Origin: Microtetraspora glauca
Lineage (GTDB): Bacteria > Actinomycetota > Actinomycetes > Streptomycetales > Streptomycetaceae
Direction: 5' to 3'
DNA: 64,000 nt
NCBI GenBank assembly: GCA_000721275.1
Contig: JOFO01000005.1
Location: 124,001 to 188,000 of the forward strand
Every line of letters begins with the position of its first letter. Positions within the stretch are counted from its first letter, which is position 1. The notes beneath the pieces are model-generated. The model had not been told where the DNA came from and made no database searches. It saw nothing but the letters and a program-made list of their open reading frames with translations. The translations under genes were made by a program, and so were the position numbers. Shown piece after piece: positions 1,258 to 61,536 of this stretch.

Positions 1258-2424
1258 ATGGCCGACGACGTCCTGGCAGCGGTCCGCGACCTCGCCCCCG
1301 TGCTGCGCGAACGCGCCGCCGAGGCCGAGGAGCTGCGCCGCGTGCCCGACGCCTCCGTCAAGGAGCTGGAGGACACCGGGTTCTTCCAGCTCCTCCAGCC
1401 GAAGACCTTCGGCGGACGCGCCGCCGACCCGGTCGCCTTCTACACGGCCGTCAAGGAGATCGCCAAGGCGTGCGGCTCGACCGGCTGGGTCGCCTCCGTG
1501 GTCGGCGTCCACCCCTGGCACGTCGCCCTCTTCGACCCCGGCGCCCAGCAGGAGGTGTGGGGCGACGACCCCAAGACCCGCATCGCCTCCTCGTACGCCC
1601 CCACCGGCAAAGCCGCCGCGGTCGACGGCGGCTTCCGCCTCTCCGGCCGCTGGCACTTCTCCTCCGGCTGCGACCACGCCCGCTGGGTGCTCCTCGGCTG
1701 CCTCGTCACCGACGCCGAGGGCAACCCCGTCGACATGCGCACCTTCCTGATCCCGCGCACCGACTACCGGATCGACGACGTCTGGGACACGGTCGGCCTG
1801 CGCGGCACCGGCAGCAACGACATCGTCGTGGACGACGTGTTCGTCCCCGAGCACCGCGCCCTCAGCTTCGGCCCCGTCACCGCCCTCGACGTCCCCGGCC
1901 ACGCGGTCAACCCCGAACCCGTCTACCGGCTGCCGTACGCCGGCGTCTTCACCACCACCATCGCCACCCCGATCGTCGGCATCGCCGAGGGCGCCTACGA
2001 CTCCTACGCCGAGGCCACCCGCAAGCGGTTCCGCGTCTCCTACGGCCAGCAGGTCGCCGAGGACCCCTTCGCCCAGGTCCGCATCGCCCGCGCCGCCAGT
2101 GACATCGACGCCGCCTGGCTCCAGCTCACCCGCAACATCGGCGCCATGCACGCCCTCGCCGAGCGCGGCGAGACGATCCCCATGGAGCTGCGCACCCGCA
2201 CCCGCCGCGACCAGGTCCTCGCCACCGAGCGCGCGGTCGGCGCGATCGACCTCCTCATGGAGAACGCCGGCGGCAACGCCATGCGCACCGGCCCCGGCGC
2301 CGTCCAGCGCGCCTGGCGCGACGCCCACACCGGCCGCGGCCACGCCGCCAACGACCCCGAGCGCGCCCTCGTCATGTACGGGCAGTGCGCCCTCGGCATC
2401 GACATCCAAGACACCATGGCCTGA
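1258..2424 (+). CDS. hsaA: 3-HSA hydroxylase oxygenase subunit HsaA (4-hydroxylase of 9,10-secosteroid)
   Basis: 388 residues, close to the 394 of M. tuberculosis HsaA. The family hydroxylates 3-HSA, the phenolic ring-A product of steroid opening, to the catechol 3,4-DHSA using reduced flavin from HsaB. Visible hallmarks are CGSTGW at 72-77, SSGCDH at 135-140, DPFAQVRIARAASDIDAAW in the C-terminal half, RRDQVLAT, and GRGHAANDPERA with the catalytic-type His near 362. The start at 1258 is preferred over the in-frame ATG at 1252 because the AAAGGGG motif at 1244-1250 is correctly spaced only from 1258. It follows its paralogue by about 106 bases and precedes hsaD, hsaC and hsaB. The assignment rests on residues remembered from the M. 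tuberculosis enzyme and on the gene order. Confidence 0.88.
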   Translation: MADDVLAAVRDLAPVLRERAAEAEELRRVPDASVKELEDTGFFQLLQPKTFGGRAADPVAFYTAVKEIAKACGSTGWVASVVGVHPWHVALFDPGAQQEVWGDDPKTRIASSYAPTGKAAAVDGGFRLSGRWHFSSGCDHARWVLLGCLVTDAEGNPVDMRTFLIPRTDYRIDDVWDTVGLRGTGSNDIVVDDVFVPEHRALSFGPVTALDVPGHAVNPEPVYRLPYAGVFTTTIATPIVGIAEGAYDSYAEATRKRFRVSYGQQVAEDPFAQVRIARAASDIDAAWLQLTRNIGAMHALAERGETIPMELRTRTRRDQVLATERAVGAIDLLMENAGGNAMRTGPGAVQRAWRDAHTGRGHAANDPERALVMYGQCALGIDIQDTMA

Positions 2425-2436
2425 GAGGTGCCGCAG

Positions 2437-3306
2437 ATGACCGAGCTCACCTTCGAGTCGACCTCCCGCACCGCCAAGGCGGCCGGCCTCACCCTGCACT
2501 ACCACGAGGCCGCGCCCGCCGGCCGGCCCGACGCCCCCGTCGTCGTCATGCTGCACGGCGGCGGCCCCGGTGCCTCCGGCTGGAGCAACTTCGGCGGCAA
2601 CCTCCACGTGTTCGCACGGGAGTTCCGCACCCTCCTCGTGGACCAGCCGTGCTACGGCCGCTCCGACAAGCCGGAACTCGACCGGGACTACTTCAGCTAC
2701 AGCGCGCGCGCCGTCGCCGCCCTCCTGGACGAACTCGGCATCGCCCGGGCCCACTTCGTCGGCAACTCGCTCGGCGGCGGCACCGCCGTCCGGATCGCGC
2801 TCGACCACCCGGAGAAGGCCGGCAAGCTCCTCCTCATGGGACCCGGCGGCGTCTCCGTCAACCTCTTCGCGCCGGACCCCACCGAAGGCATCAAACGGCT
2901 CTTCGAGTTCAACGCCGCACCCGAGCCGACGAAGGACCAGCTGCGCGCCTTCCTCTCCGTCATGGCGTACGACCAGTCCGTCGTCACCGACGCCCTCGTC
3001 GAGGAGCGGTGGGCCTCCGCCACCGACCCCGCCACCCGCCTCGGCACCGCCCGCATGGCCGCCTCCTTCGCGAACCCCGCATGGGCCGCGGCCACCCAAC
3101 TCTGGCGCGAGGCCCACCGGATCACCCGGCCGGTGCTCCTGACGTGGGGCCGCGAGGACCGCGTCAACCCCCTCGACGGCGCCCTCGTCGCCCTGAGGAC
3201 GATCCCCGACGCGCGGCTCCACGTCTTCCCGCACTGCGGCCACTGGGCCCAGACCGAACGGGCCGACGAGTTCAACCGCCTCGCCCTCGACTTCTTCACC
3301 CACTGA
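2437..3306 (+). CDS. hsaD: 4,9-DSHA hydrolase HsaD (meta-cleavage product hydrolase)
   Basis: 289-residue alpha/beta hydrolase of the carbon-carbon bond hydrolase (MCP hydrolase) group. HsaD splits the ring-A meta-cleavage product DSHA into HIP (the propionyl-indanedione) and a hydroxyhexadienoate. Visible features are the oxyanion loop HGGGPGASGWSNF near 38-50, the nucleophile elbow GNSLGGG, the acid in GREDRVNP and the catalytic His in HCGHWAQ. PCYGRSDKP is also typical of HsaD and BphD. The ATG at 2437 sits 6 bases after GAGAGG, so it is preferred over the GTG at 2428. It begins just after the hsaA stop, which indicates co-transcription. Confidence 0.9.
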   Translation: MTELTFESTSRTAKAAGLTLHYHEAAPAGRPDAPVVVMLHGGGPGASGWSNFGGNLHVFAREFRTLLVDQPCYGRSDKPELDRDYFSYSARAVAALLDELGIARAHFVGNSLGGGTAVRIALDHPEKAGKLLLMGPGGVSVNLFAPDPTEGIKRLFEFNAAPEPTKDQLRAFLSVMAYDQSVVTDALVEERWASATDPATRLGTARMAASFANPAWAAATQLWREAHRITRPVLLTWGREDRVNPLDGALVALRTIPDARLHVFPHCGHWAQTERADEFNRLALDFFTH

Positions 3307-3385
3307 GCTCCGAGCTCCGGGGCCCGAGCTGCTGAGCCCCGAGCCCCCTCAGCCCCCGAGACCCTTCACCGAAGAGGTGCCCGCC

Positions 3386-4279
3386 ATGGACATTCGCGCA
3401 CTCGGCTACCTGCGCCTGGAGACCACCCGCCTCGACGAGTGGCGCCGCTACACCCTCGACATCCTCGGCATGGCCGAGGCACCCGGCTCCACCGACACCA
3501 CCCTCCTGCTCCGCCTCGACGACCGCGCCCACCGGATCGCGATCCACGCCGGCGACGGCGACCGGCTGCTCGCCGCCGGCTGGGAGGTCGCGAACGTGCG
3601 CGCCCTCGCCGAGGCCGTCGCCGAACTGGAGGCGGCCGGCGTCGCCGTCAAGACCGCCGACGCCGCCGAACTGGCCGAGCGCCGCGTCCAGGGCCTCGTC
3701 CACCTCACCGACCCGTGCGGCAACCCGCTGGAGCTGTACTGGGGCCAGGCGCAGGACCACACCCCGCTCGCCACCCCGTACGGCAACCGCTTCGTCACCG
3801 GCGACCTCGGCCTCGGCCACGTCGTCCTGCCCGCCCCCGACATCGAGGCCGCCCTCGACTTCTACGAGAAGCTCCTCGGCTTCCAGCTCCGCGACTCCAT
3901 GAAGCTGCCCCCGCAGGCCGTCCCCACCGCCGCCGAGCAGCGCGACTTCCACTGGATGCACTTCCTCAGCCCCAACCGCCGCCACCACAGTCTCGGCCTC
4001 TACCCGGGCGCCCTGCCCCCCGGCATCGTCCACTTCATGGTGGAGCTGGAGACCCTGGACGACGTCGGCCTCGGTCTCGACCGCATGCAGGCCGCCGGCA
4101 TCCCCATCGCCTCCAGCCTCGGCCGCCACACCAACGACCGCATGGTCTCCTTCTATGCGCAGGCCCCCGGCGGCTTCCAGGTCGAGTACGGCTGGGACGG
4201 CCTGGTGGTCGACCCCGCCACCTGGGTCGCCAAGGAGATCACCGCCGACAGCGTCTGGGGCCACCAGTGGAACGGCTGA
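3386..4279 (+). CDS. hsaC: 3,4-DHSA iron-dependent extradiol dioxygenase HsaC
   Basis: 297 residues made of two VOC modules, like BphC and HsaC (300 residues in M. tuberculosis). It meta-cleaves the catechol 3,4-DHSA with ferrous iron and O2. The iron ligands are visible: His145 in GLGHVVL, His216 in IVHFMVE and Glu267 in FQVEYGW, almost the numbering of the mycobacterial enzyme. The second-sphere catalytic histidine lies in RRHHSLGL (200-201). The start at 3386 is supported by GAAGAGG at 3371-3377. There is an 80-base gap after hsaD, and the 3' end overlaps the hsaB start by 13 bases. Confidence 0.92.
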   Translation: MDIRALGYLRLETTRLDEWRRYTLDILGMAEAPGSTDTTLLLRLDDRAHRIAIHAGDGDRLLAAGWEVANVRALAEAVAELEAAGVAVKTADAAELAERRVQGLVHLTDPCGNPLELYWGQAQDHTPLATPYGNRFVTGDLGLGHVVLPAPDIEAALDFYEKLLGFQLRDSMKLPPQAVPTAAEQRDFHWMHFLSPNRRHHSLGLYPGALPPGIVHFMVELETLDDVGLGLDRMQAAGIPIASSLGRHTNDRMVSFYAQAPGGFQVEYGWDGLVVDPATWVAKEITADSVWGHQWNG

Positions 4280-53929: not shown

Positions 53930-55984
53930 TCAGTACGTGAGGATCCCCGGGTCCGTCACGCCGTCCGCGCCCGTCTCCACGTGCCCGGCCAGCCGCCGCA
54001 CGTAGTCGGTGTGGGCGGCGGACGTGATGGTGACGTCGTACCACCGCCCGGACGCCGAGAGCGGCACGGAGTGGGTGACGGTCGCGCCCCGGCCGACCGC
54101 CAGCGTCCGGGTGCCGCCCCCGTAGGCGTGGGTGAGGGTCACCGTCGTCGCCGGGCCGGCGTTGGTGAAGGTGAGGTCCAGGGAGCCGGTGGTGCCGTTG
54201 TGGCGGGCCGTGACCTCCGGGACGGCGGTCTTGCCGGGGGAGCGGAAGCGGCGCAGGAAGCCGTTCGGGCCGTGCACGGTGAGGTCGGTGGTGCCCTTGG
54301 AGTACCTGGTGTTCCAGGTGTCCGCGATCGACGTGCCGGCCGCCGCCGTGTACGTCCACGGGGCGTCCGTGCGGTTCGCCGACGTCACGTAGAACTGGGC
54401 GCCGGCGGCCGGGCCGCCGCTGAAGGAGAGCCGGAAGGTGCCGGCCGTGGTGTCGGCGCTGCCGTCCACGTACGGCGCGTACTTCAGCGGACGGGTCGGC
54501 TTGGCGCCGGGCTCCTGGCGCGGCATGGTGCCGACGGCCGGCGCGGTGGCCGGGAAGTCCGGGTGGCGGTCGCGGTCGGGCGGGTAGTAGCCGGCCGTGG
54601 ACGGCAGCGCGACCGGCTGCGGCTGCGCGCGGGTGAAGTCGAACGCCGAGGTCAGGTCGCCGCAGACGGCCCGCCGCCACGGCGAGATCTGCGGCTCGTG
54701 GACGCCGAAGCGGCGCTCGATGAAGCGGATCACCGAGGTGTGGTCGAAGGTCTCGGAGCAGGTGTAGCCGCCGGTCGACCAGGGCGACACGACGATCATG
54801 GGGACGCGCGGCCCGAGCCCGTACGGCCCGGCGACGTAGCCCGTCTTCCCCGGGAAGTGGTCCAGCGCGGTCGGGGTCGTCGACAGGCCCTGCGCCGCCG
54901 AGGCCGGGACGTACGGCGGGACGACGTGGTCGAAGAAGCCGTCGTTCTCGTCGTACGTGATGAACAGCGCCGTACGGGCCCACACGTCCGGGTTCGAGGT
55001 CAGCGCGTCCAGCACCTGGGCGATGTACCAGGCGCCGTAGTTCGACGGCCAGTTGGAGTGCTCGGAGAACGCCTCGGGCGCGGCGATCCAGGAGACCTGC
55101 GGCAGCCGCCCGGCCTGCACGTCGGCGCGGAGCCGGTCGAAGTAGCCCTCCCCGGCCTTTGCGTTCGTGCCCGTACGGGCCTTCTCGTACAGCGGGTCGC
55201 CGGGCCGGGCGTCGCGGTAGGTGTTGAAGTACAGCAGCGAGTTGTCGCCGTAGTTGCCGCGGTACGCGTCGCTGATCCAGCCCCAGTGGCCGGCCGCGTC
55301 CAGCCCGTCGCCGACGTCCTGGTAGACCTTCCAGGAGATCCCGGCCGCCTCCAGGCGCTCGGGGTACGTCTTCCAGCCGTATCCGGCCTCCGCGTTGTTG
55401 AGGACCGGGCCGCCGCCCGTGCCGTCGTTGCCGGTGTGACCCGACCACAGGTAGTAGCGGTTCGGGTCGGTCGAGCCGATGAACGAGCAGTGGTAGGCGT
55501 CGCAGATCGTGAACGCGTCGGCGAGCGCGTAGTGGAAGGGGATGTCGTCCCGGGTCAGGTACGCCATCGTCGCCTTGGTCTTGGCGGGTATCCACTGGTC
55601 GTAGCGGCCGTGGTTGAACGCCTTCTGGCCGCCCGCCCAGTCGTGGTTGAGCCCCTGGAGGAACTCCATGCCGAGCCGCGCGCTCTCCGGCCGGAACGGC
55701 AGCGTCACCTTCGTGCCGTCGGCCTGGTGCCACACGGACTTGCCGCTCGGCAGCGTGACCGGACGCGGGTCGCCGAAGCCGCGGACGCCCTTCATCGCCC
55801 CGAAGTAGTGGTCGAAGGAACGGTTCTCCTGCATGAGGACGACGATGTGCTCGACGTCCTGGAGGGTGCCGGTCGACCCCTGCGCGGGGATCGAGGCGGC
55901 ACGGGCGATGGACTCGGACAGCGCGCTGAAGGCGACGGCGCCGCCGGCGAGCTGAAGGAACCTGCGGCGATCGAGATCGGCCAT
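53930..55984 (-). CDS. Tat-exported phospholipase C (phosphocholine-type, PlcC family)
   Basis: 684 residues. The N-terminus LDRRRFLQLAGGAVAFSAL is a Tat signal. The phosphoesterase domain (about 45-460) contains HIVVLMQENRSFDHYFGAMKGVRGFGDPR, GPRVPMIVVSPWSTGGY and TFDHTSVIRFIERRFGV. Two C-terminal repeats of DUF756 type follow (about 505-590 and 600-680). These enzymes hydrolyse phosphatidylcholine and sphingomyelin outside the cell, often under phosphate limitation. It is a single gene, convergent with the GlxA regulator. Confidence 0.93.
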   Translation of the reverse strand: MADLDRRRFLQLAGGAVAFSALSESIARAASIPAQGSTGTLQDVEHIVVLMQENRSFDHYFGAMKGVRGFGDPRPVTLPSGKSVWHQADGTKVTLPFRPESARLGMEFLQGLNHDWAGGQKAFNHGRYDQWIPAKTKATMAYLTRDDIPFHYALADAFTICDAYHCSFIGSTDPNRYYLWSGHTGNDGTGGGPVLNNAEAGYGWKTYPERLEAAGISWKVYQDVGDGLDAAGHWGWISDAYRGNYGDNSLLYFNTYRDARPGDPLYEKARTGTNAKAGEGYFDRLRADVQAGRLPQVSWIAAPEAFSEHSNWPSNYGAWYIAQVLDALTSNPDVWARTALFITYDENDGFFDHVVPPYVPASAAQGLSTTPTALDHFPGKTGYVAGPYGLGPRVPMIVVSPWSTGGYTCSETFDHTSVIRFIERRFGVHEPQISPWRRAVCGDLTSAFDFTRAQPQPVALPSTAGYYPPDRDRHPDFPATAPAVGTMPRQEPGAKPTRPLKYAPYVDGSADTTAGTFRLSFSGGPAAGAQFYVTSANRTDAPWTYTAAAGTSIADTWNTRYSKGTTDLTVHGPNGFLRRFRSPGKTAVPEVTARHNGTTGSLDLTFTNAGPATTVTLTHAYGGGTRTLAVGRGATVTHSVPLSASGRWYDVTITSAAHTDYVRRLAGHVETGADGVTDPGILTY

Positions 55985-56277
55985 GGGGGAGCAGTCCTCC
56001 GGAAGTCGAGGGGACGGATACGGAGCGGCGGCCGGAGACCGGCGCGGAGCGCCCCAAGAAGAGCGCCCGGGAGCCACTGGCCCACGACCGTCCCGTGACT
56101 TCCCGCTGTACACCCGGCGAAATCCCCCGGGGCGCGGGCCGCTGACGCGACGCCGAGGCCGGGGGCGGGGTGGGAGGGCCGGCCCGGCGTCGCGGGCGTG
56201 GTGACATGTCCGGACAGGTGCGGCTCGTCGTGCCGTGCGCCCTTTCCCTGGGGTGCCGGCTCCGTGAAGCTGTACGC

Positions 56278-57112: not shown

Positions 57113-57502
57113 TCATCGCTCGCGCGGCGCCGGGACGGCACCGGCATGGGAACCGGAACCCGCGCCGGGACCGGCGTCGGCGTGGCGCAGCTCCTCCAGG
57201 AGCTCGCTCTGCCCCACCAGCAGCTCGGTGAGGATGCGGCGGGCCGCCTTCAGCAGGTCCGCCACGTCGCCGCCGGCGAGGGCGTAGCTGACCGTCGACC
57301 CCTCCCGGACGGACACCACGATGCCCGACCGGCGCAGCACCGCGAGCTGCTGGGAGAGGTTGGACGGCTCCACCTCGATGTCCTTCAGCAGTTCCCGTAC
57401 GGGCAGCGGCCCGTTCTGGAGCAGTTCCAGGACGCGGATCCGGACCGGGTGCCCGAGCATGCGGAAGAACTCCGCCTTGGCCTGGTACAGCGGCACCTGC
57501 AC
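57113..57502 (-). CDS. ArsR-family regulator without metal-binding motif
   Basis: 129 residues with an ArsR winged helix (KAEFFRMLGHPVRIRVLELLQNGPLPVRELLKDIEVEPSNLSQQLAVLRRSGIVVSVREGSTVSYALAGGDVADLLKAARRIL). It lacks the ELCVCDL cysteines of arsenic sensors, so it probably senses something else (redox or sulfur compounds are common). The GTG at 57502 is chosen for GAAGGAGT about 8 bases upstream. Confidence 0.83.
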   Translation of the reverse strand: MQVPLYQAKAEFFRMLGHPVRIRVLELLQNGPLPVRELLKDIEVEPSNLSQQLAVLRRSGIVVSVREGSTVSYALAGGDVADLLKAARRILTELLVGQSELLEELRHADAGPGAGSGSHAGAVPAPRER

Positions 57503-57658
57503 GCGACGACACTCCTTCCATGATCCACAGCTGGCGGCCATTGTCCCGCCTCCCGGTCCCGCCCGCCCTCGACTGATCATTTTCGGATGTGCCGAGTTGA
57601 AGATCTCTTCAAGTCGAGGGCGCACGGAGCCGCGAGGAAGAAGCCGGGGGAGGGGAGG

Positions 57659-58033
57659 CTACAGCTCCAGGTCCGCCTCGATGCGCTTGAGCTGGTGCCG
57701 GGCCATGGCCAGGTTCGCCCTGCCCTTGTCCAGGACCATGTACAGGAACAGGCCGTTGCCGCCCCGGCTCTTGATCAGCCGGATCAGGTGGTACTGGCTG
57801 TCCAGCGTGATCAGCATGTCCTCGATGCCGTCGTTGATCCCCAGCATCTCCATCGTGCGGATCTTCGCCCGGACCACGTCGGTGTTGCCTGCCGCCGCGA
57901 CCGTCAGGTCGAGGTCCTTGCTCCCGCCGAGCGTGCCCAGGGCCATGCCGCTCGTGTAATCGACCAGCGCCACCCCCACACTGCCCTCGATCGACGTCAT
58001 CGCCTCTTTCAGAGACGTCTCCACACTCGCCAT
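57659..58033 (-). CDS. Roadblock/LC7-domain protein
   Basis: 124 residues: SLKEAMTSIEGSVGVALVDYTSGMALGTLG, LGINDGIEDMLITLDSQYHLIRLIKSRGGNGLFLYMVLDKGRANLAMARHQLKRIE. This is the roadblock/LC7 (MglB-like) fold. Streptomyces conservons usually pair it with a small GTPase, DUF742 and a histidine kinase; none is present here, so it is an orphan. It may regulate a Ras-like GTPase encoded elsewhere. Confidence 0.82.
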   Translation of the reverse strand: MASVETSLKEAMTSIEGSVGVALVDYTSGMALGTLGGSKDLDLTVAAAGNTDVVRAKIRTMEMLGINDGIEDMLITLDSQYHLIRLIKSRGGNGLFLYMVLDKGRANLAMARHQLKRIEADLEL

Positions 58034-58246
58034 CTGTAGGTGCTCCCTCGGTACTCGACGGCCCGGCACGGCGACGCGTCCGCGCCCGGGCCGGGCGGTG
58101 ATCACGGACGTCCCCCACTAGACACCAAGTGAGCCGCCCGCGGGGGGCTTTCGCCGGAAGACGATGCCGCGGGCATAGGACGGCACGCCGTCGCCGCGCC
58201 CCGCGCGGACCCGGACCCACCCGGGCGGGGAACGGCTCCGCCGTCC

Positions 58247-59016: not shown

Positions 59017-61536
59017 ATGACGCACGACCAGACGGGCACCGCGCTGCGGGTGGTACTGACGGATGTCAGCACGGCGGTGGTGGCGGCGTGGCGCGCCGCC
59101 TTCGCCGACGTGCCCGGCATCGAGATCCGGCGGGGCTCGATCCTCGACGCCGACGTCGACGCGTGGGTCACGCCGACGAACGCGGCGGGACGGATGGACG
59201 GCGGCGTCGACGCGGCGATCAAGCGGCACCTCGGCGCCGGGATCCAGCTGCGGGTGCGGCGGGCGATCGAGGACCGGTTCGGCGGGACCATGCCCGTCGG
59301 CAGCGCGGTGTGCGTCCCGTCGGGGGCGACCGTGCCGCGCTTCGTCATCTCGACGCCGACCATGGTCGCCTCCTCGCAGAACGTGAGCGACACGCTCAAC
59401 GTGGCCAAGGCCTGCGCCGCCGCCTTCCAGGCCGTCCACCGGCAGAACCGCAAGGCACCGGGCAGCATCCGCTCCGTCGCGCTCGTCGGGATGGGCGCCC
59501 GCACCGGCCGGGTGCCGGCCCGGGTCTGCGCCAACCTGATGTGGACCGGCTACACGCTCTTCCACGACCACTGGTTCGAGGACGACGACGAGCTGCGCGC
59601 CACCATCACCGCCCAGCTCGCGGGCATCGAGCAGACACCGCACACGACCCGGGTACGGATCACCCCGCCCCAGGGGGCACCGGCCAAAGGAGCACCGGCC
59701 AAAGGAGCGTCGGCCAAAGGGGATCCGGCCAAAGGAGTACCGGACGGGGGAGTTCTGAGCGGCAACGCTTCCTCCGCGGCTGAACCGGGCCCGCAGCCGC
59801 AGCCGATCCAGAATCCGGCGCACCCCGCACCCTCCTCCGACGCCGCAGGTACGACCCCCGGGAGTTCCCCCGCCATGAGCGACGCGACCGCGCCCTCCAC
59901 CTCCTCGCCCGCTCCCCAGCCCGACCCGAACGACCCCCTCGCCCTCGCCGAGCTGTTCACCGGCGGCGGCGAGCCGTGGCTTCCGCTCCTCAAGCCCGTC
60001 ATCGAGGCCCGCCCGGACGCCCCCCAGTTCATCGGGCCGGGCCGCAGCCCGCAGGTCGTCCCGGTCCGCGAGCTCACCTTCCAGGCGCTCAAGCCCCACC
60101 CGCCGCACAAGTGGAAGGTCGTCGTCTTCGGGCAGAACCCCTACCCGCGGCCGGAGAGCGCCACCGGCATCGCCATGTTCGACAACACGTTCAACGACTG
60201 GAAGGACAGCCAGTTCGGACGGGTCGTCAGCATCCGCTGCCTCATCAAGGCGGCGGCGATGTGGAAGTACGGCATCGCCAAGAAGACGCCCATCGCCGAC
60301 GTCCGCGCCCTGCTGAAGGAGCGCGAGACCGTGCAGCCGCCCGAGTGGTTCCAGGCCATGCTCACCCAGGGCGTCCTGCTCCTCAACGCCTCGCTGACCG
60401 CCAGCGCCGACGGTGCGATGGCCACCGACCAGCACACCGGCTTCTGGCGCCCCGTCGCCGAGCGGATCGCCGAGGAGATCCTGCGCGCCAAGCAGGACGC
60501 GGAGGACCCCGAGGACCGGGGCGTCGTCTTCGCCTGGTGGGGCGCGCACGCCCGCAGCCTGAAGCGGGTCGTGCAGCGGCTGGAGAAGAAGTACCCGGGC
60601 GTCGAGGTCCGCCACCTGGACCACGCCAACCCGGCCGCCCAGGGCGACATCTTCTGCGACGGCGACCACCTCGCCACGGTCAACGACGCCCTGCTGTCCC
60701 TCGGCGCCGACCCGGTCGACTGGCTGCCGAGCAAGGGATGGAACCAGCCCCCGGCGGGCGCCGGCACGGGCGCGGCCGGCGGATCCGGCGGGCCGGACGC
60801 CGATGTCGCCGCCCGGATGGGCGCCTTCATCGCCTCCACGATGGAGCTCCACCAGCTGTACCTGGAGCGCCTGACCAGCGTCCGCGACGAGGGCCACGTC
60901 CTGCCGCCGCTGACCGGTGTGTTCGACACCCCGCTGATGCCGTTCGAGGACGCCGTCGGCCCCGTCACCAAGGTGCTGCGGGGCCTCGGCGGCCACATCG
61001 ACCGGTCCCGCGAGTTCGGCAAGCGGCGCGCGGACGAGCAGGCCGGCGCCGGACTCTCCGCCGACGCCATCGCCGCCCTGTACCTCTACACCTGCGAGTC
61101 CGGCTTCTACCGGAACATCAACGCCGTCCTCCGCTCCCCGGACCGCGCCCGGGTGGTCCCGTACCTGCCGTACCTGCGGCTGCTCTTCGACGCGGTGGAG
61201 GCCCTGCCGGCCCGCACCGCACCGCTGTGGCGCGGCGTCGCGCTCGACCTGCGCGGCCAGTACCCGGTCGGCGAGACGGTCACCTGGTGGGGCGTCTCCT
61301 CCTGCACCTCCGAACTCGGCGTCGCCCGCTCCTTCCTCGGCAGCCGGGGCAAGCGGACCCTCTTCGAGGTGACGCCGGCCCGCGCCGTCGGCATCCGCAG
61401 CTTCTCCGCCTTCACCGGCGAGGAGGAGTACATCCTCGCCCCCGGGACCCAGCTGGAGGTCACCGACGTGAAGGCCGAACGCGGCGGCCTGTGCACGGTG
61501 AAGCTCAGGGAGGTGGACACCCGCCTGGTCTCCTGA
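59017..61536 (+). CDS. Macro domain - uracil-DNA glycosylase - ADP-ribosyltransferase fusion
   Basis: 839 residues. 1-210: macro-like domain (ILDADVDAWVTPTNAAGRMDGGVDAAI, Asn55, Gly62-Gly63; FVISTPTM; ALVGMGARTG). 221-245: AxAKG repeats, then a Pro/Ser/Ala linker. About 330-580: family 1 UDG fold (VVVFGQNPYP at 372-377, VLLLNASLTA, FAWWGAHARSLKRV, LDHANPAAQG with His536, VDWLP). In the first motif Asn374 stands where GQDPYH enzymes have the catalytic Asp. About 600-839: R-S-E type ART: Arg739 in LWRGV, Ser761-Ser762 in GVSSCTS, Glu802-Glu804 in GEEEYILAPGT. No signal peptide, so cytoplasmic. The ATG follows AGGGGG. Domain reading is by eye; the fusion is one uninterrupted frame. I do not recognise a described protein of this layout. 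Confidence 0.88.
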   Translation: MTHDQTGTALRVVLTDVSTAVVAAWRAAFADVPGIEIRRGSILDADVDAWVTPTNAAGRMDGGVDAAIKRHLGAGIQLRVRRAIEDRFGGTMPVGSAVCVPSGATVPRFVISTPTMVASSQNVSDTLNVAKACAAAFQAVHRQNRKAPGSIRSVALVGMGARTGRVPARVCANLMWTGYTLFHDHWFEDDDELRATITAQLAGIEQTPHTTRVRITPPQGAPAKGAPAKGASAKGDPAKGVPDGGVLSGNASSAAEPGPQPQPIQNPAHPAPSSDAAGTTPGSSPAMSDATAPSTSSPAPQPDPNDPLALAELFTGGGEPWLPLLKPVIEARPDAPQFIGPGRSPQVVPVRELTFQALKPHPPHKWKVVVFGQNPYPRPESATGIAMFDNTFNDWKDSQFGRVVSIRCLIKAAAMWKYGIAKKTPIADVRALLKERETVQPPEWFQAMLTQGVLLLNASLTASADGAMATDQHTGFWRPVAERIAEEILRAKQDAEDPEDRGVVFAWWGAHARSLKRVVQRLEKKYPGVEVRHLDHANPAAQGDIFCDGDHLATVNDALLSLGADPVDWLPSKGWNQPPAGAGTGAAGGSGGPDADVAARMGAFIASTMELHQLYLERLTSVRDEGHVLPPLTGVFDTPLMPFEDAVGPVTKVLRGLGGHIDRSREFGKRRADEQAGAGLSADAIAALYLYTCESGFYRNINAVLRSPDRARVVPYLPYLRLLFDAVEALPARTAPLWRGVALDLRGQYPVGETVTWWGVSSCTSELGVARSFLGSRGKRTLFEVTPARAVGIRSFSAFTGEEEYILAPGTQLEVTDVKAERGGLCTVKLREVDTRLVS
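59677..59751 (+). repeat. 15-bp tandem repeat coding for an AxAKG linker
   Basis: Four copies of a 15-base unit (GCACCGGCCAAAGGA type at 59677, 59692, 59707, 59722) and a degenerate fifth (59737) encode APAKG APAKG ASAKG DPAKG VPDGG inside the fusion gene. Each unit also carries AAAGG(A/G). The repeat number may vary between strains. Confidence 0.85.

What the first reader, a model, noticed from the sequence alone, without database searches (positions are those of the whole stretch)
59017..61536. One protein joins a macro domain, a uracil-DNA-glycosylase fold and an ADP-ribosyltransferase
A single 839-codon frame holds an ADP-ribose-binding macro domain, a family 1 UDG fold and an R-S-E type ADP-ribosyltransferase. 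Writer and reader (or eraser) of ADP-ribose are tied to a DNA-base-recognition module. Known DNA ADP-ribosylation systems (DarT/DarG) and macro-domain conflict proteins use separate genes, and I recall none with a UDG between them. A possible reading is damage-site-directed ADP-ribosylation of DNA or of repair proteins, or a self-limiting toxin-antitoxin in one chain.
Basis: partly seen in the sequence, partly recalled or inferred. Interest (0 to 1): 0.92.

Follow-up and report, generated by a model that had tools for sequence, protein, structure and literature searches.

The report
UDG-fold ADP-ribosyltransferase with macro partner
This Streptomyces protein is a fused copy of what is usually a two-gene pair, an ADP-ribose attaching enzyme carrying a domain shaped like a DNA-repair enzyme that has lost its key residue, plus a macro-domain protein that probably removes or reads the mark; I found no description of the pair in the papers searched.

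Summary
In detail: one open frame (59017-61536) encodes a macro domain, a family-1 UDG fold and an R-S-E ADP-ribosyltransferase (ART); sequence profiles and predicted structures agree. The interpretation needs changing. The unit is a two-gene module, macro plus UDG-ART. Of 88 loci, 48 have the genes divergent, 20 in tandem, 19 fused, and 1 (truncated contig) shows no macro. In 295 Streptomyces genomes both parts occur in the same 49 and, at the thresholds used, nowhere else. No other neighbour is widely conserved. The window's fusion looks young: a relative 96% identical in UDG-ART has separate genes, and the window keeps UDG-ART's old start site. The UDG domain is not an ordinary glycosylase: the catalytic Asp is Asn in 84 of 84 aligned loci and never Asp in 66 readable relatives. 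The ART residues are intact and resemble arginine-type ARTs. UDG-ART relatives carry choanoflagellate and red-algal names, and two unnamed proteins join this UDG subtype to WWE. Best reading: a reversible ADP-ribosylation module whose UDG-like domain reads a target without excising it, with macro as eraser or antidote. Target, toxicity and any phage link are untested.

The parts
59017..59661 (+). Macro part, residues 1-215. N55 and G62-G63, D65 invariant in 84 loci; matches the first MacroD-type motif Nx(6)GG[VLI].
59662..59922 (+). Low-complexity linker (residues 216-302) with a 15-bp tandem repeat at 59677-59743 (about 4.5 copies, KGAPA-like).
   Evidence: Sequence and Tandem Repeats Finder
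59859..59877 (+). Relict internal start of UDG-ART: CGGGAG-N10-ATG (Met287). The same sequence is the likely start of the separate UDG-ART gene in L085 and G630.
   Evidence: Of 19 fused loci the window alone keeps ATG plus this site; L056 keeps GTG plus GGGAG
59923..60741 (+). UDG-fold domain, residues 303-575. N374 (codon 60136-60138) stands at the UNG catalytic Asp; N457 (60385-60387) and H536 (60622-60624) are retained; Ala540 stands at the UNG wedge Leu.
60880..61533 (+). R-S-E ART domain, residues 622-839: R739 (61231-61233), S761-S762 (61297-61302), E802-E803-E804 (61420-61428), all invariant in 84 loci.

Best explanation
It is a fused copy of a two-component reversible ADP-ribosylation module found patchily in actinomycete genomes. 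Component 1, UDG-ART, is a writer: an arginine-type (R-S-ExE) ART joined to a UDG-fold domain that no longer has the catalytic aspartate and probably binds a flipped base, nucleotide or nucleic-acid-bound partner without excising it, so aiming or switching on the ART. Component 2, the macro protein, removes or captures the ADP-ribose mark and keeps the writer in check. Shown: the three folds, intact ART residues, loss of the UDG Asp, strict pairing, agreement of the two trees, and several fusions. Inferred: ART activity, macro as eraser/antidote, the UDG domain as non-excising reader, and a role in conflict (phage or stress) rather than housekeeping.
For: Pairing: of 295 Streptomyces genomes, the same 49 handles hold macro (E<=1e-40) and UDG-ART (E<=1e-50); the other 246 hold neither at these thresholds; in 48 of the 49 both are on one contig within 2.5 kb. 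Macro lies near UDG-ART (flank 6 kb) in 79 of 80 genome-contig loci. No other flanking gene is shared widely: the widest other cluster spans 5 loci in 4 genera. Macro and UDG-ART tree distances correlate, r 0.874, maximum of 2000 permutations 0.128, 84 loci. ART: R739, S761/762, E802-E804 invariant in 84 loci; ExE in 12 of the 13 more distant proteins in A6, Q-x-E in P0222; best ART fold matches Tre1 and ART2.2. UDG: Asn at the catalytic Asp in 84 of 84 loci; N, S, A, T or C and never D in the 66 of 120 listed relatives where the motif could be read. Parallel: in Brig3 the D127N change abolishes excision but the mutant still holds DNA with the base flipped out (PMC13160076, passages). Patchy presence: 49 of 295 in the genus, 3 of 396 in a phylum sample, all three in the window's genus and one the window itself. 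Two proteins (P0182, P0183) join WWE to the same UDG subtype.
Against: No activity of any domain is shown. Asn is the normal catalytic-site residue in the MUG/TDG branch (recalled), and H536 and N457 are retained in the bacterial loci, so weak or altered excision is possible. Tree agreement would also arise from any two genes inherited together and is not proof of a shared function. Known macrodomains that remove arginine-linked ADP-ribose (MavL type) carry other motifs (PMC10951314, passages), so an arginine-modifying ART and a MacroD-like/Ymx7-like eraser are not an obvious match. The one locus outside Actinomycetota (L015) shows no macro in 6 kb upstream, though its contig ends inside the ART; for eukaryotic members a macro partner was not sought. 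No PADLOC model matched and defence-island context was not tested, so conflict is a guess.
Confidence: 0.55

Rival explanations
1. Endogenous stress signalling: a PARP-like damage response in which the UDG-like domain binds damaged or uracil-containing DNA and the ART marks DNA-bound proteins, reversed by macro. Not a toxin system.
For: UDG fold; UDG-ARTs under eukaryotic names; WWE-UDG proteins of unnamed origin, WWE being known from ADP-ribose signalling (recalled); in single-contig genomes the pair lies on a chromosome-sized contig.
Against: Only 49 of 295 Streptomyces genomes have it, with mostly unrelated surroundings from locus to locus, which is unlike a core repair function.
Confidence: 0.2
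2. The UDG domain is bait: it mimics host UDG to sense phage UDG inhibitors (Ugi or p56 type), and their binding releases a toxic ART held in check by macro.
For: A UDG fold without the catalytic Asp, beside two other UNGs in the same genome; UDG inhibitors are known, with solved complexes (titles).
Against: The pocket motifs PYPR, ESATG, NPAA and LLLN are among the most conserved parts, as expected for a ligand pocket rather than for bait alone; no Streptomyces phage inhibitor was looked for.
Confidence: 0.12
3. The UDG domain is an active glycosylase of altered specificity (Asn-based, MUG/TDG-like, or acting on modified phage bases like Brig1/Brig3), and the ART marks the abasic site or bound proteins.
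For: N374, N457 and H536 invariant in 84 loci; UDG-superfamily defence glycosylases exist, some near ADP-ribosyl glycohydrolase genes (PMC11078745, PMC13160076, passages).
Against: Some relatives carry Ser, Ala, Cys or Thr at the catalytic position, and Trp, Tyr, Gly, Asn or Ser at the His; the wedge Leu position is Ala. Brig3 needs its catalytic Asp.
Confidence: 0.1
4. Assembly or frame error joined two neighbouring genes in the window only.
For: Relatives L085 and G630 have separate genes, and the linker is repetitive. The window strain's reads were not seen.
Against: 19 of 88 loci are fused, counting the window, 11 of those 19 without any in-frame ATG in the linker, and all 120 listed full-length homologues are Macro+ART.
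Confidence: 0.03

Closest known systems
DarTG (DarT ART + DarG macro toxin-antitoxin)
   Same: Two adjacent genes, an ART writer and a macro-domain partner; a paired writer/eraser logic.
Family-1 UDG, nearest by sequence Nitratifractor salsuginis UNG (5x3g)
   Same: Fold, GQ-x-PYPRPESA loop, LLLN Asn.
   Different: Catalytic Asp replaced, wedge Leu position is Ala, HPSP-type motif is HxNPAA.
Tre1 (6drh) and vertebrate ART2.2 (1gxy), R-S-E ARTs
   Same: Fold and R-S-ExE residues.
   Different: Those have no UDG domain. The 6drh entry is a toxin/immunity pair whose immunity protein is, as I recall, an ARH-type hydrolase, not a macro protein.
Brig1/Brig3 defence glycosylases
   Same: UDG-superfamily proteins used outside repair, some near ADP-ribosyl glycohydrolase genes.
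   Different: Those excise modified phage bases and I saw no ART in them; Brig3 needs its Asp, which is missing here.
SCO6735 macro hydrolase of Streptomyces coelicolor
   Same: Macro domain of the same genus that acts on ADP-ribosylated nucleic acid bases (PMC9411070 title in a listing; PMC13036486 passages).
   Different: No UDG-ART partner is known to me; the sequences were not compared here.

Membership tests
PF01129 R-S-E ADP-ribosyltransferases | Profile match above cut-off, ART fold, R / S / ExE residues | tested here: met
PF01129 R-S-E ADP-ribosyltransferases | NAD+-dependent transfer to arginine | not testable with these tools
   No assay
Family-1 uracil-DNA glycosylase | UNG fold | tested here: met
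Family-1 uracil-DNA glycosylase | Catalytic Asp in GQDPY | tested here: not met
   Asn in 84 of 84 loci; never Asp in 66 readable of 120 listed relatives; alignment to 5x3g
Family-1 uracil-DNA glycosylase | Score above curated equivalog cut-off | tested here: not met
   63.8 bits against 162 for the best-matching model, 53 against 185.75 for TIGR00628
Macro domain PF01661 | Profile match above cut-off and macro fold | tested here: met
MacroD-type hydrolase | Motif Nx(6)GG[VLI] | tested here: met
   N55-x6-G62-G63-V64 in the window; position 64 is V in 71 and L in 1 of 84, T in 9, A in 3; motif from PMC10951314
MacroD-type hydrolase | Motif G[VIA][YF]G | tested here: not met
   Absent from the window's macro part by eye; the loop reads VGMGARTGRV
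Arg-specific macrodomain (MavL/DUF4804 type) | WDxx[SA]xPGN[DE] motif | tested here: not met
   Absent from the window's macro part by eye (motif)
DarTG | DarT-family ART | tested here: not met
   The only ART family hit at E<=1 is PF01129; no PADLOC model matched
DarTG | ART gene paired with an adjacent macro gene | tested here: met
DarTG | Toxicity neutralised by macro | not testable with these tools
   No assay

The most novel reading that the evidence does not exclude
An old family, shared by bacteria and eukaryotes, in which a dead UDG acts as a base reader (uracil or a modified base in foreign, stressed or transcribed nucleic acid) and directs reversible arginine or nucleic-acid ADP-ribosylation by a joined ART; actinomycetes pair it strictly with a macro eraser, while some relatives join the same UDG subtype to a WWE reader. 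This would be a base-reading counterpart of PARP signalling and a new class of ADP-ribose conflict module.
Probability: 0.25. Interest if true: 0.92.

Novelty: new variant of a known kind. Interest (0 to 1): 0.76.

Why it matters
ART-macro pairs are known, but here the writer carries a glycosylase fold that seems to have been turned from cutting to reading. If so, it links recognition of particular bases or nucleic acid structures to ADP-ribosylation, in bacteria and perhaps in protists. The strict pairing gives a clean genetic test (UDG-ART with and without macro), and the natural series of divergent, tandem and fused arrangements is a good system for studying how toxin-antitoxin-like partners fuse. 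The source names in the listing are mostly by macro or ART domain, with a few 'uracil-DNA glycosylase', and Pfam gave no UDG hit for this protein, so the glycosylase fold is easily missed.

Tried and rejected
Assembly error: rejected for the family. Phage or plasmid cargo: phage records give only macro-region hits under 36% identity, in 16 records; two viral-contig scans gave no relative; in the plasmid collection three records with most of the protein are replicons of 1.5 to 11.9 Mb and one fused copy lies on a 335-kb plasmid. Conserved neighbours other than macro: none wide; of the window's seven neighbours tested, the SDR gene has homologues (32-42% identity) in 6 loci and the others in 0 to 2, the methyltransferase being beside the pair in the close relative L085 too. 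PADLOC: no hit at E<=1. Full-length AF2 model: macro part poor (pLDDT under 50 at 54-124), so macro was folded alone; of its five models two had mean pLDDT under 50. A pattern for the ART ExE motif was badly written and matched nothing; the alignments were used instead. The motif-A pattern read 66 of 120 listed relatives; the other 54 (fragments, or not fitting the pattern) were not counted. In one search, L026, L063 and L077 were dropped for short macro hits (L077's macro is split between two frames, though it counts as fused), and L015 for lacking macro. L007-L012 were left out of the 88 classified loci for want of a UDG match of 50% identity. Paper searches listed no paper that I saw to describe the macro + UDG + ART combination; only the held open-licence PMC text was searched. 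Papers were seen as abstract and/or passages only: PMC13036486, PMC11833690, PMC10951314, PMC11078745, PMC13160076, PMC11377751; in PMC9503650 the terms sought did not occur; the others named were seen only in search listings. A Planctomycetota genome search was not possible.

Full report

It is a two-gene module. In Nonomuraea (L003) and Embleya (L001) the macro protein is a separate gene read divergently from UDG-ART; in Streptomyces NBC_00841 (L004) the two are in tandem. A scan of the genome-contig collection found 208 encoding stretches, of which the best 80 were kept. Macro was found near UDG-ART in 79 of those 80; the exception, L015 (a Planctomycetota bin), ends inside the ART and has no macro in the 6 kb upstream, which holds some N. 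With 8 more loci (L001-L006, L013, L014; L005 is the window itself, and some may repeat strains of the scan) 88 were classified: 48 divergent, 20 tandem, 19 fused, 1 without macro. Two of the 88 (L063, L077) have partial or frame-split macro hits and one (L026) is cut by a contig end. In the 84 used for trees, the 34 loci outside Streptomyces (setting OV450 aside) are all divergent.

The pair is strict in the genus. A sample of 295 Streptomyces genomes was searched with each part: UDG-ART in 49 (E<=1e-50) and macro in 49 (E<=1e-40), and the 49 handles are the same. In 48 of them both matches lie on one contig within 2.5 kb; in G515 they lie near the ends of two contigs, so adjacency is broken by the assembly. 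In G443 the ART part is on another contig than the UDG part and macro. In G454 about 2.4 kb with an ECF-sigma-like gene (by eye) lies between them. In a phylum-wide sample 3 of 396 genomes, all in the window's genus and one of them the window's own, had UDG-ART at E<=1e-15. No other gene is widely conserved beside the pair: the widest other cluster spans 5 loci in 4 genera. Macro and UDG-ART trees agree (distance r 0.874, maximum of 2000 permutations 0.128), as they would for any two genes that travel together, and the arrangement changes 7 times on the UDG-ART tree against a mean of 32.8 when shuffled. The simplest history is an ancestral divergent pair, a switch to tandem in one Streptomyces clade, then several fusions (or some reversals).

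The window's fusion looks young. L085 (90-92% identical per domain) and G630 (UDG-ART 96%, macro 93%) have separate genes. All 20 tandem loci have an in-frame ATG or GTG for UDG-ART with GGGAG about 10 bases upstream. Among the 19 fused loci the window keeps ATG plus such a site (CGGGAG-N10-ATG, Met287) and L056 keeps GTG plus GGGAG, while 11 have no in-frame ATG in the linker. The window linker holds a 15-bp repeat, and G630 differs there by indels, including one base in an AAAGG(G) run. So the strain may make both the fusion and free UDG-ART; this is inference.

The UDG domain is altered. By the aligned positions, UNG's catalytic Asp corresponds to N374, the Asn of LLLN to N457, the His of HPSP to H536 and the wedge Leu to A540 (the roles of these UNG residues are recalled, apart from the Asp and Leu, which PMC13160076 passages give). 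In 84 actinobacterial loci N374, N457 and H536 are invariant. Among the 120 listed relatives of the UDG search (157 of 2137 passed), motif A was readable in 66: N in 47, S in 14, A in 3, T in 1, C in 1, D in none. The His position was readable in 75: H in 67, W 3, Y 2, G 1, N 1, S 1. Many of these relatives are close ones; the non-Asn cases are in the divergent set. New conserved blocks are PYPR-x-ESATGIA-x-FD and NPAA. The genome has two further UNG genes, one above the family cut-off (260 bits) and one a little below (176 bits). The domain is thus unlikely to be the cell's uracil remover. A non-excising reader is the reading I prefer: in Brig3 the same kind of change (D127N) stops excision and immunity yet leaves DNA bound with the base flipped (PMC13160076, passages). 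Because Asn is also the working residue in MUG/TDG enzymes (recalled), residual or altered activity is not excluded.

The ART is intact. R739, S761, S762 and E802-E804 are invariant in 84 loci; ExE is kept in 12 of the 13 more distant proteins aligned in A6, P0222 having Q-x-E, and the Salpingoeca model P0145 lacks the stretch with the Arg, perhaps a gene-model fault. Its nearest folds (Tre1, HopU1, ART2.2, XopAI, also ExoS and C3-type) are, as I recall, mostly arginine-modifying, C3 being an exception. The macro carries the first MacroD motif but not the second, and lacks the MavL-type arginine-hydrolase motif, so whether it erases this ART's product is open. One published macro of S. coelicolor, SCO6735, acts on thymine- and uracil-linked ADP-ribose (PMC13036486 passages), so a nucleic-acid target is also conceivable.

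Beyond bacteria. The UDG search returned UDG-ART proteins named as Salpingoeca rosetta (P0145, on a 753-kb contig) and Gracilaria domingensis (P0201, on a 183-kb contig), and UDG-domain proteins from a Prymnesium bin, an entry labelled symbB and an MMETSP transcript. Two proteins without an organism name (P0182, P0183) join WWE (E 1.6e-8, 4.4e-9) to this UDG subtype. Contamination was not tested beyond contig length.

Mechanism. Step 1 (inferred): the UDG-like domain binds a base, nucleotide or nucleic-acid-linked partner. Step 2 (residues shown, activity inferred): the ART transfers ADP-ribose to a nearby target, or its activity is released. Step 3 (pairing shown, role inferred): macro removes or binds the mark, which protects the cell. 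The patchy spread, unrelated surroundings and strict pairing resemble toxin-antitoxin or defence modules, but no defence model matched and no phage copy was found.

Novelty. Eight searches of the held paper library listed no description of this combination. Source names are by macro, ART or UDG alone. I file it as a new variant of a known kind (ART-macro pair), with an open possibility of something further off if the UDG-reading step is real.

Noticed in passing
P0182, P0183: Proteins joining a WWE domain to the same UDG subtype, without an organism name; an independent link between this UDG domain and ADP-ribose readers.
   Followed up: partly
window 59662-59922; L085 5760-5960; L099: Repetitive linker that differs by indels, including a one-base difference in an AAAGG(G) run, between the fused window and its unfused near relative G630; fusion may switch easily in this clade.
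   Followed up: partly
window 57113-58105: An ArsR-like regulator and a Roadblock/LC7-like gene (names by eye, no profile run) near the module; both have homologues (73-74% identity) near the UDG-ART of only one other locus, L072.
   Followed up: no
L007 (G012:C1:3005183-3005365): A short ART piece (79% identity, query 460-521 of 539) in a Streptomyces genome with no intact copy found: probably a decayed UDG-ART.
   Followed up: no
L077 5355-5973: Macro match split between two frames upstream of a UDG-ART frame: a possibly broken or misread macro in one fused-type locus.
   Followed up: no
L102 (G454) 1694-3602: An ECF-sigma-like gene and a possible anti-sigma-like protein (by eye) lie between macro and UDG-ART in one genome.
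   Followed up: no
P0203, P0208: A divergent clade with GLAPYPR at the UDG motif A (both Gln and Asp lost), MPPK-type basic N-termini and no annotated ART domain.
   Followed up: no
window 53930-56113 (-): A phospholipase C / acid phosphatase-like frame with a twin-arginine-like signal (named by eye; no profile run) upstream.
   Followed up: no
L015 (Planctomycetota): The only kept genome locus outside Actinomycetota has a protein resembling formylglycine-generating/SUMF1 domains (by eye) just upstream of UDG-ART and no macro in 6 kb upstream.
   Followed up: partly
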